DNA of 64,000 nucleotides from Spartobacteria bacterium LR76 (GTDB taxonomy: Bacteria; Verrucomicrobiota; Verrucomicrobiia; Chthoniobacterales; Terrimicrobiaceae), in NCBI GenBank assembly GCA_003054655.1, contig QAYZ01000012.1, positions 124,001 through 188,000 of the forward strand. The letters run 5' to 3'. Below the pieces are notes generated by a model. The model was given only the letters and a program-made list of their open reading frames with translations, was not told the origin of the DNA and searched no databases. The position numbers and the translations under genes were made by a program. Of the stretch, positions 34,388-39,422 are shown one piece after another. Each line of letters begins with the position of its first letter. Position 1 is the stretch's first letter.

Positions 34388-36776
<2,389 letters not shown>

Positions 36777-36800
36777 CAACTTCGCAGATACATTTACGGC

Positions 36801-38570
36801 GTGGGCGCGTTTTCCAAGAATTTAATCCTCGGAATCGAGGGCGGCGCGACAAAAACCCGGTGGATTCTCTGTGAACAAGCAGGCGAGTCGCTCATCACCG
36901 TCTCGGAAGGGGTACTCGGCCCTGGCAGCTTGCGGTTGCTGAGTGTGGAGGGACTCCGCCACCTTCTCTCCGTCCTGCCGGCCGATGCCAGCCGGGTGGG
37001 CGTTTTTCTTGCCGGATGCGCGACGGATCGCGACCGCGACATCCTGCGCGAGGTGGCGGCTTCCGTCTGGCCGCATGCGACAGTGCGGGTCGGGAGCGAC
37101 CGGGAGTCCGGCTTTGCTGCGGCTTTTCAGGATCGCGATGGCATCGCTGTGATCGCAGGCACGGGCTCGGCCGTGACCGGACGGGTCGGAGGTATTGAGG
37201 ATCGTGCGGGCGGCTGGGGGCATCTGCTGGGCGACTCCGGCGGCGGGTACGATATCGCCATCAACGCGCTCCGACGCATCCTGTACGACTACGACACGGC
37301 GAGGGAAATCACTCCCCTTGCCGCCGAGACGCTGCAACTCCTCGGCATCAACACCCTGGCCGAGCTGACAGCGTGGGCACAGGCCGCGCACAAGAGCGAC
37401 CTGGCTCGGATCACCCCTGTTGTCTTTCGTCATGCCGGAGAGTTTTCCGTTGCGCGCATCCTCCGGCGGTGCGCGGCGGCGCTGGCGCGTCTCGCTGGCA
37501 GCGTGGCGCGGCGTCTGGAGTTTGAGCATCCTGTCGTGCGCTTGCAGGGCGGGGTATTCACCGGGCAGCCGTTGTACAGGGAGCTGTTCGAGCGGGAATT
37601 TCGCAAGGCATGGCCGTCTGCCGACATCGATGTCTGCACGACTCAGGGAAGCTTGGGAGCGGTCTATCTCGCGGCGGGGCATTTGCCGACACCTGCCTGT
37701 GCCCCGACCGTTGCGGAACCCGAGGTCGCCCGGTCGGAAACCGAGCAGCCCAACCCGCGCTCGACCGATCTTGGCCTCCTGCCGACGCGGGAACTCGTGG
37801 AGCTTTTTGCCACGGAGGAGCGGGCGGTCGAGGAGGCGGTCAGCCATTGCGTCCCGGAGCTGGCGGCGGCGGTTGATCTTGTGACCGCATCGCTTCAGGC
37901 GGGCGGGCGGCTGTTTTACATCGGAGCGGGTACGAGCGGACGCCTCGGCCTCCTGGATGCGAGCGAAATGCCGCCGACCTTCGGTGTCGACCCGGAGATG
38001 GTGCAGGGAATCCTCGCGGGTGGCGTGGCGGCGGTGATGCGCAGCTCGGAGAGTGCGGAGGATTCCCGTGAGGCTGGGGCTTTGGCTCTACGAGATCGCG
38101 GGGTGCGTGCCTCCGATGTAGTCTGCGGCATCACAGCGAGCGGTCGCACCCCGTATGTGCTGGGAGCTTTGGCAGAAGCCGGTCGATTAGGGGCTGGTAC
38201 GATCCTTCTCACCTGCAACCCCCGGCGCGATCGCACTGCTTCGCACGCTGATGTGGAGATCGACCTGCCGACCGGGCCGGAACTCATCACCGGCTCAACT
38301 CGCCTGAAAGCTGGCACTGCCACCAAGGTCGCCCTGAATATCCTTTCCACCTGCTCCATGGTTCGCCTCGGCCGGGTGGATGGAAATTTCATGTCCTGTC
38401 TCAAACCGACCAATGAAAAACTCCGCCGCCGGGCAGCCCAGATCGTAGCCGACTGCGCAAAAATCGACTTCGCTCAAGCCTTGGATCTCCTGGCGTGTGC
38501 GAATTGGGACATTCGAGAGGCGATTTTGCGTACAAAAACGTACATTCCTCCGTCCGACACCTCGCGATAG
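36801..38570 (+). CDS. murQ: Fusion: BadF/BadG-type amino-sugar kinase + N-acetylmuramic acid 6-phosphate etherase
   Basis: One 589-residue frame with two enzymes. Residues 1 to about 300 are a BadF/BadG/NagK-type ATPase: phosphate loop LGIEGGATKTRW (Glu in place of the usual Asp), AGTGSAVTGRVG and GGWGHLLGDSGGGYDIA. Residues about 315-589 are MurQ: IGAGTSGRLGLLDASEMPPTFG, ITASGRTPYV and NFMSCLKPTNEKLRRRA. MurQ cleaves the lactyl ether of MurNAc-6-phosphate to give GlcNAc-6-phosphate. A kinase of the MurK type would supply that substrate, so the fusion could perform both steps of MurNAc salvage. GTG 36801 is the only close start. Confidence 0.9.
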   Translation: MGAFSKNLILGIEGGATKTRWILCEQAGESLITVSEGVLGPGSLRLLSVEGLRHLLSVLPADASRVGVFLAGCATDRDRDILREVAASVWPHATVRVGSDRESGFAAAFQDRDGIAVIAGTGSAVTGRVGGIEDRAGGWGHLLGDSGGGYDIAINALRRILYDYDTAREITPLAAETLQLLGINTLAELTAWAQAAHKSDLARITPVVFRHAGEFSVARILRRCAAALARLAGSVARRLEFEHPVVRLQGGVFTGQPLYRELFEREFRKAWPSADIDVCTTQGSLGAVYLAAGHLPTPACAPTVAEPEVARSETEQPNPRSTDLGLLPTRELVELFATEERAVEEAVSHCVPELAAAVDLVTASLQAGGRLFYIGAGTSGRLGLLDASEMPPTFGVDPEMVQGILAGGVAAVMRSSESAEDSREAGALALRDRGVRASDVVCGITASGRTPYVLGALAEAGRLGAGTILLTCNPRRDRTASHADVEIDLPTGPELITGSTRLKAGTATKVALNILSTCSMVRLGRVDGNFMSCLKPTNEKLRRRAAQIVADCAKIDFAQALDLLACANWDIREAILRTKTYIPPSDTSR

Positions 38571-38617: not shown

Positions 38618-38634
38618 TTGGCACGGCCTCTGCT
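38618..38634 (+). promoter_or_regulatory. Sigma-54 (RpoN) promoter
   Basis: TTGGCACGGCCTCTGCT matches the sigma-54 consensus yTGGCACGrNNNTTGCW at all fixed positions except one T (C at 38630), with GG and GC exactly 12 bases apart. It lies 47 bases after the murQ stop. The expected transcript start is about 38645. No gene on the + strand follows before 39949, so it drives the structured RNA described next. Confidence 0.75.
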
Positions 38635-38644
38635 ATATACATAT

Positions 38645-38854
38645 CAACAGAACAACCCGGTCGAGGGAGCCGAGTGGTAAGGGGGGATACTACCGGCAGG
38701 GATTCAAAACGACCGGGTTGTTCGTTTCTCTTTATTCTTCTCCTTTTGGCAAAGGTAAACAGGGTGCCAAGAGGAGAGGAAAAAGAAACGGCTCCGGAGG
38801 CCTCCGCAGTCGCAGGTACACGCCAGTCGCACATCGCGAATCTGGCGTTTTTTT
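38645..38854 (+). ncRNA. Predicted sigma-54-dependent structured small RNA, about 210 nt
   Basis: Hairpin 1: a 14-bp perfect stem (38650-38663 with 38710-38723), enclosing an inner hairpin GCCG-A-GTGGTA / TACTAC-CGGC (38669-38697, one bulged A) whose loop is AGGGGGGA. Hairpin 2: 17 bp (38735-38751 with 38765-38781, two G-T pairs), extended by CGTTTC / GAAACG (38723-38728 with 38785-38790). Hairpin 3: palindrome CGGAGGCCTCCG (38795-38806). Terminator stem and seven T end at 38854. No coding frame has a ribosome-binding site or coding character. No family known to me fits; boundaries are predictions. Confidence 0.65.
38820..38854 (+). terminator. Intrinsic terminator of the predicted small RNA
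   Basis: The stem ACGCCAG / CTGGCGT with an inner TCGC / GCGA pairing is followed by TTTTTTT (38848-38854). There is no T-run on the other side, so it works on the + strand only, where no gene precedes it except the murQ fusion 250 bases upstream. Confidence 0.85.
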
Positions 38855-38860
38855 AGGCCC

Positions 38861-39139
38861 TCAGGACTCGAGATCCTTGAGCTCGCGCTCCAGGCGCTCG
38901 CTGAGCCACTGCTTGATCATGCTCTGGTAATTGAGATACCGCGAGCGGGCGAGCCGCTTGATGCGGGCGAGCATGCGGGGATCGAACCGCAGGGTGATCG
39001 TGGTGGAGTCGCGGTTGTCCGTCTTGAGCATCGAGGCGTTCATCAGCCTCGGGTCGAGCGACGTTTCCTTCCAAAACTCTGCTTCCTCGCCTTCGTCCGA
39101 GAAACTCGGGACGTCGCCCCATTTGCTGAGTACTCTCAT
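38861..39139 (-). CDS. brnA: BrnA-type antitoxin
   Basis: 92 residues; the C-terminal part DSTTITLRFDPRMLARIKRLARSRYLNYQSMIKQWLSERLERE is a ribbon-helix-helix DNA-binding domain of the BrnA/CopG kind, and the N-terminal half would bind the toxin. It follows brnT by four bases, the usual toxin-first order for BrnT/BrnA, and would autorepress the operon. Confidence 0.82.
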   Translation of the reverse strand: MRVLSKWGDVPSFSDEGEEAEFWKETSLDPRLMNASMLKTDNRDSTTITLRFDPRMLARIKRLARSRYLNYQSMIKQWLSERLERELKDLES

Positions 39140-39143
39140 GATG

Positions 39144-39422
39144 TCAGTTGTTTAGTTCCGCGTTTTTGCGCTCGTAGAATCCCGCCTCGGCCTCTGTCAT
39201 GACACGCGACTGGATGATGCGATAGCGTTTGCCATCGGTCCAGAAGACGGTGAAAAGCAGCTTTCCCGAGACGGCGCGGCCCAGGATGAAGTAGCGCGCG
39301 TCGCTGGAATCATCCAGCTCCGGCAGGAGCCGGATGCTGAAAGGGTCCTCGAAAGTTTCCTCAACCTCGCGGGGGGTAAGATCCCCGAGGCCGGCGGGGG
39401 AATTGATCCAGTCGAACTCCAT
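39144..39422 (-). CDS. brnT: BrnT-type ribonuclease toxin
   Basis: 92 residues of the BrnT (DUF497) fold, RelE-like: begins MEFDWINSPAG, has EVEETFEDPF, ARYFILGRAVSGKLLFTVFWTDGKRYRIIQSRVMTEAE, with the RxIxxR-type positive patch near the C-terminus. BrnT toxins cleave RNA and are neutralised by BrnA, encoded just downstream. Typical length. Confidence 0.82.
   Translation of the reverse strand: MEFDWINSPAGLGDLTPREVEETFEDPFSIRLLPELDDSSDARYFILGRAVSGKLLFTVFWTDGKRYRIIQSRVMTEAEAGFYERKNAELNN

What the first reader, a model, noticed from the sequence alone, without database searches (positions are those of the whole stretch)
38618..38854. Orphan sigma-54 promoter driving a structured, terminator-ended RNA of about 210 nt
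A near-consensus -24/-12 promoter (GG and GC exactly 12 apart, one consensus mismatch) points at a segment with no coding gene on its strand. Transcript start is expected near 38645, five bases before a 14-bp perfect stem; a second stem of 17+6 bp and an intrinsic terminator with seven T follow. Promoter, structure and terminator line up in one direction. The layout (RpoN-driven, about 200 nt, serial hairpins) resembles GlmY/GlmZ of enterobacteria, and the gene just upstream is an amino-sugar kinase-MurQ fusion. The match to a known sRNA class is by analogy only; no sequence relation is claimed.
Basis: partly seen in the sequence, partly recalled or inferred. Interest (0 to 1): 0.87.

Follow-up and report, generated by a model that had tools for sequence, protein, structure and literature searches.

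The report
Genus-specific sigma-54-driven regulatory RNA
A stretch between two genes of a soil bacterium (probably Terrimicrobium) carries a real, conserved small RNA gene switched on by the nitrogen-type sigma factor RpoN; it is a new RNA family of a known kind, is not a relative of GlmY/GlmZ, and may act on the toxin gene next door.

Summary
All three available species of the genus carry this gene in the same place. The -24/-12 element is identical at 13 of 13 positions in all three, while its 4-base spacer (1/4), the -11 to -2 stretch (3/9) and the upstream intergenic DNA (19%) have drifted. Strong conservation starts at the predicted transcription start and covers 146 nt (90% identical in all three, against 41% at third codon positions of the neighbouring gene). 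G-U pairs assign the structure to the + strand, and a terminator with seven T is kept. The overlapping sigma-70-like hexamers are not conserved. RpoN and four clear activators are in the genome; sister sigma-54 sites sit before amtB and PII genes, so the regulon looks nitrogen-related.

The GlmY/GlmZ analogy fails: no Rfam match, and no RapZ, Hfq or CsrA found. The covariance model finds the RNA in no other genus (order, and a phylum sample).

Best reading: an RpoN-activated, Hfq-independent regulatory RNA of about 210 nt. Its G6 apical loop may pair with a conserved C6 just upstream of the adjacent brnT toxin gene; this target is suggestive only. Transcription itself is untested.

The parts
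38618..38634 (+). sigma-54 promoter, -24 TTGGCACG (38618-38625) and -12 CTGCT (38630-38634)
   Evidence: 13/13 positions identical in three species, spacer 1/4; RpoN in genome
38645..38854 (+). predicted transcript, about 210 nt
   Evidence: conserved block starts at predicted +1 and the segment ends at a T7 terminator in all three species
38644..38789 (+). conserved RNA core
   Evidence: 90% of positions identical in all three species; third codon positions of murQ 41%, linker 14%
38650..38723 (+). hairpin H1 (arms 38650-38663 / 38710-38723) with inner hairpin
   Evidence: one compensatory A-U/G-C pair
38680..38687 (+). apical loop AGGGGGGA of H1, invariant, unpaired in the predicted fold; candidate seed
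38729..38786 (+). hairpin H2, 22 bp, arms nearly invariant, loop variable
38820..38854 (+). intrinsic terminator, stem then TTTTTTT (38848-38854)
   Evidence: also T7-ended stems in L002 and L003
39434..39439 (-). C6 at -17 to -12 of the brnT start codon, candidate binding site for the G6 loop
   Evidence: conserved in all three species, mostly unpaired
39144..39422 (-). BrnT-like toxin gene, candidate target
   Evidence: PF04365 E 7.5e-8, 33.0 bits against cut-off 34.5
38861..39139 (-). BrnA-like CopG antitoxin gene, convergent to the RNA
   Evidence: PF12441 E 6.6e-12
36348..38570 (+). BadF-type kinase and SIS (MurQ-like) fusion gene upstream
   Evidence: PF01869, PF22645, PF13580

Best explanation
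A stand-alone small-RNA gene. RpoN-RNA polymerase sits at 38618-38634 and, when one of the cell's activators (most likely of the nitrogen circuit) fires, makes an RNA of about 210 nt that ends at the T7 terminator. Two long, sequence-constrained hairpins stabilise the RNA and present a G6 loop. The RNA works without Hfq, by loop-to-linear base pairing with C-rich ribosome-binding regions; the best candidate is the brnT toxin leader next door, whose translation it would block. Shown by sequence and conservation: promoter, RNA boundaries, strand, structure, terminator. Inferred: transcription, which activator, base pairing, target.
For: Promoter: 13/13 conserved with drifting spacer and flanks. 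RNA core 90% identical against 41% at murQ third codon positions, 51-65% in four other genes. Folding z -8.0. Polarity: 155 paired cells on + against 145 on -. RpoN present; four strong activators, three NtrC-like and one NifA-like. Sister sigma-54 sites before amtB and PII. Target: of 12 C6/G6 runs in the window only two are conserved in all three species, the RNA loop and the brnT leader; in 376 kb 19 of 71 runs are conserved between two species; C6 mostly unpaired, 6 bp with the loop, 8 bp in one species.
Against: No expression data. No shared activator site was found upstream of the RNA and of amtB/PII, so nitrogen control is guilt by association. Only three species, with one compensatory change and one broken pair. 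The brnT pairing was picked from about 48 segment-target tests at p about 0.01, is only 6 bp in two species, and the C6 may be conserved for another reason. Five of 19 conserved C6 runs lie upstream of some ORF start under a loose rule. Both arms of H2 are conserved in sequence, which loop pairing does not explain.
Confidence: 0.5

Rival explanations
1. RpoN-dependent RNA that binds and titrates a protein through H1 and H2 (sponge or decoy), not an antisense RNA.
For: Both arms of H2 and the inner part of H1 are conserved in sequence, not only in pairing. This fits protein recognition or a fixed RNase III site better than seed pairing. Hfq was not found.
Against: The known sponge partners looked for, CsrA and RapZ, were not found. 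No protein partner is identified.
Confidence: 0.3
2. The RNA acts locally on the convergent brnT-brnA operon as a cis-antisense or transcription-interference element overlapping the 3' UTR of the toxin-antitoxin mRNA.
For: The RNA terminator ends 7 bases before the brnA stop codon; no strong terminator for the brn operon was found between the genes; arrangement kept in all three species.
Against: The linker and terminator sequences nearest brnA are the least conserved part (14% and 57%), while the distal core is the most conserved. G-U polarity shows a structure selected on the + strand.
Confidence: 0.12
3. Transcribed by the housekeeping sigma factor from an overlapping TTGAAA-17-TATATA promoter with a TGC extended -10; the sigma-54 match is secondary or a second layer, as in E. 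coli glmY.
For: TTGAAA 38611-38616 and TATATA 38634-38639 with 17-bp spacing are present.
Against: Only 6 of these 12 positions are conserved in all three species, against 13 of 13 for -24/-12. Dual use is not excluded.
Confidence: 0.08
4. No RNA: a conserved DNA element or a chance structure.
For: No RNA-seq was available.
Against: Promoter, conserved start, + strand G-U polarity and terminator agree in three species. One copy per genome and no match in plasmids, phages or viral contigs.
Confidence: 0.04

Closest known systems
NrsZ of Pseudomonas (PMC8395346)
   Same: About 226 nt, RpoN-dependent, orphan intergenic RNA gene; nitrogen circuit (here inferred only).
   Different: No Rfam match was found; NrsZ works in a genome that has Hfq and targets rhlA; activator and processing unknown here.
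GlmY/GlmZ of enterobacteria (PMC7073468)
   Same: RpoN-type promoter overlapping a sigma-70-like one; about 200 nt with serial hairpins.
   Different: No Rfam match; no RapZ and no Hfq found in the genome; no second homologous RNA copy; no sign of a glmS link.
Qrr RNAs of Vibrio and CrcZ of Pseudomonas (from my own knowledge)
   Same: Sigma-54 plus activator drives a small RNA.
   Different: Both act with Hfq, which was not found here; no sequence relation in Rfam.
Small RNAs with C-rich loops that bind Shine-Dalgarno sequences in Gram-positive bacteria (from my own knowledge)
   Same: Hfq-independent pairing between a hairpin loop and a ribosome-binding region is the proposed mode.
   Different: Here the loop is G-rich and the leader C-rich; untested.

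Membership tests
RpoN (sigma-54)-dependent small RNA genes | -24/-12 element upstream of a non-coding transcript | tested here: met
   13/13 conserved positions in three species
RpoN (sigma-54)-dependent small RNA genes | RpoN and AAA+ activators encoded | tested here: met
RpoN (sigma-54)-dependent small RNA genes | transcript made and lost without RpoN | not testable with these tools
   needs RNA and a mutant
GlmY/GlmZ | match to the Rfam family models | tested here: not met
   no match even at E up to 5
GlmY/GlmZ | RapZ adaptor in the genome | tested here: not met
   PF03668 not found; control genomes ring; genome 96% complete
GlmY/GlmZ | Hfq in the genome for glmS pairing | tested here: not met
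   PF17209 not found; control genomes ring
GlmY/GlmZ | pair of homologous RNAs | tested here: not met
   one copy per genome
CsrA sponge (RsmY/RsmZ type) | CsrA in the genome | tested here: not met
   PF02599 not found
NrsZ-like nitrogen RNA | control by NtrC under nitrogen limitation | tested here: inconclusive
   sister sigma-54 sites before amtB and PII, but no common activator site found
RNA antitoxin acting on brnT | pairing site at the toxin ribosome-binding region | tested here: inconclusive
   conserved C6/G6 complementarity, mostly accessible, modest statistics

The most novel reading that the evidence does not exclude
A nitrogen-sigma-factor-driven RNA that silences the BrnT ribonuclease toxin next to it by a G6-loop/C6-leader contact, adding an RNA antitoxin layer, tied to nutrient state, on top of the protein antitoxin BrnA, in a phylum where Hfq-free RNA regulation is hardly studied.
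Probability: 0.2. Interest if true: 0.75.

Novelty: new member of a known kind. Interest (0 to 1): 0.5.

Why it matters
Few small RNAs are listed for the whole Planctomycetes-Verrucomicrobia-Chlamydiae group (8 Rfam families in one survey, PMC9029176), and my literature searches found no report of an RpoN-driven one in Verrucomicrobiota. This one has unusually clear borders, one copy per genome, and apparently a culturable host (one genome has the size and contig number of T. sacchariphilum NM-5T). If the brnT link holds, it would join nutrient-sensing sigma-54 control to a toxin-antitoxin system through RNA in a cell that apparently lacks Hfq.

Tried and rejected
GlmY/GlmZ relation. CsrA sponge. 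tRNA or known structured RNA: weak microRNA-family hits are stem-only matches far below cut-off. Mobile repeat or phage origin: single copy, no match in viral contigs, plasmids or phages. Wider family: covariance model R1 found nothing credible outside the genus in the order (213 genomes) or a phylum sample (388 genomes). The weak G012 hit at E 0.04 was not pursued, and the minus-strand G001 hit overlaps the RNA itself. Targets with the full reverse complement of loop 1: the three best-looking hits are not orthologous in all species and lie inside coding regions in the two relatives. NifA-type TGT-N10-ACA upstream site: present in this species at -148, imperfect in the other two, not claimed. 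Pairing of the RNA loops with amtB, PII, porin and the other neighbours: no signal. A first run of that script timed out.

Full report
What is there. The + strand at 38618-38634 reads TTGGCACG-GCCT-CTGCT. It is the only site in the 64-kb window within one mismatch of the sigma-54 consensus. As a pattern alone this is weak: the whole genome holds three such sites against seven for the reversed control pattern. Downstream, 38645-38856 folds at -97.2 kcal/mol against a shuffled mean of -63.3 (z -8.0). It forms two long hairpins and a terminator stem with seven T at 38848-38854. Rfam has no match.

Comparison decides the matter. The same DNA sits in the same place in both other species of the genus. 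I aligned 6.7 kb of the three genomes and counted positions identical in all three: upstream intergenic 19%; TTGGCACG 8/8; spacer 1/4; CTGCT 5/5; -11 to -2 3/9; RNA core 38644-38789 90%; linker 38790-38824 14%; terminator 57%. Third codon positions are 41% in the upstream gene and 51-65% in hemL, queA, brnA and brnT. At the noncoding background (23%) the chance of 13/13 is about 5e-9, and even at a generous 0.60 it is 0.0013. Conservation switches on at the base where sigma-54 transcription would start. The overlapping sigma-70-like hexamers keep only 6 of 12 positions. An overlapping sigma-70 promoter is also known for E. coli glmY (PMC7073468), so dual use is not excluded.

Strand and structure. 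All three species keep a T7-ended terminator stem, giving RNAs of about 200-211 nt. Of 52 consensus pairs one has a compensatory change, three have one-sided changes that keep pairing, and one is broken in one species. Because several pairs are G-U, the same helices score 155 paired cells on + and 145 on -; the selected strand is +. Covariation is thin because the sequences are so alike. A 2-nt indel inside H1 rules out a conserved reading frame across it.

Distribution. A covariance model of the core finds the RNA once in each of the three genus members and not credibly in other genomes of the order (213 searched) or a phylum sample of 388. Plasmids, phages and viral contigs have none. One of the two relatives is JAFKMU010000037.1, a Verrucomicrobia MAG. 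The other has the size and contig number of Terrimicrobium sacchariphilum NM-5T (4.75 Mb, 3 contigs; PMC5532833), so the genus is probably Terrimicrobium; that naming is inference.

Regulation. The genome encodes one RpoN and four strong sigma-54 activators, three NtrC-like and one GAF-domain NifA-like; none reaches the curated cut-off for a named type. A stricter sigma-54 pattern gives six sites in this genome and four in each relative. Besides the RNA, sites found in two or three species precede an ammonium transporter (PF00909), a P-II protein (PF00543), a porin-like protein without a Pfam match, and an unknown protein. So nitrogen supply is the likely signal. No activator-binding site common to these promoters was found.

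Why not GlmY/GlmZ. GlmY works by sequestering RapZ, and GlmZ pairs with glmS (PMC7073468). RapZ's domain and Hfq were not found in a 96%-complete genome, while control genomes rang; CsrA was not found either. There is no second copy of the RNA. The functional analogy is therefore unsupported beyond 'RpoN-driven RNA with hairpins'. NrsZ, a 226-nt RpoN/NtrC RNA of Pseudomonas (PMC8395346), is the nearer parallel in layout, again without a known sequence relation.

A possible target. The apical loop of H1 is AGGGGGGA, invariant and unpaired in the predicted fold. A small pairing test over neighbours and sigma-54-controlled genes picked out the brnT leader (p about 0.01 among about 48 tests). That leader carries CCCCCC at -17 to -12 of the start codon in all three species. 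Of 12 C6/G6 runs in the window only this and the RNA loop are conserved in all three. In the whole 376-kb contig, 19 of 71 runs are conserved between two species, so a conserved C6 in a neighbour's ribosome-binding region is uncommon but not decisive. The leader site is unpaired in the two relatives and mostly so in this species. Pairing is 6 bp, extended to 8 bp (AUCCCCCC) in one species. I give the specific brnT mechanism about 0.2.

Verdict. A genuine new small-RNA family with a sigma-54 promoter, restricted as far as can be seen to one genus: a new member of a known kind. The proposed mechanism, Hfq-free loop pairing, is inferred; the main rival is protein binding, favoured by the conserved H2 arms.

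Noticed in passing
window 38861-39422 (-): BrnT-BrnA-like toxin-antitoxin pair just downstream of a glyoxalase-like gene, convergent to the RNA and kept in all three species; the BrnT match is slightly below the Pfam cut-off.
   Followed up: partly
L117 and L112, upstream of position 1500: Conserved inverted repeat TTATCCAC...GTGGATAA inside a conserved stretch upstream of the sigma-54 site of amtB; looks like an activator binding site.
   Followed up: no
L113, L115, L105: Sigma-54 site TTGGCACGGTCGATGCT, with everything from the site to past the start codon identical in three species, in front of an unknown protein without Pfam match (MIHANCRVRLTADDFAF...).
   Followed up: no
L110, L109, L108: Conserved sigma-54 site TTGGCACATAACGTGCT with a conserved GCAT-rich inverted repeat downstream, in the leader of a porin-like protein without Pfam match.
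   Followed up: no
window 39371-39376 (-): A second C6 in the brnT mRNA, 63 bases after the leader C6 (46 bases after the start codon), shared by two of the three species.
   Followed up: partly
own genome G000: No Hfq, CsrA or RapZ domain found, although RpoN and four activators are present.
   Followed up: yes
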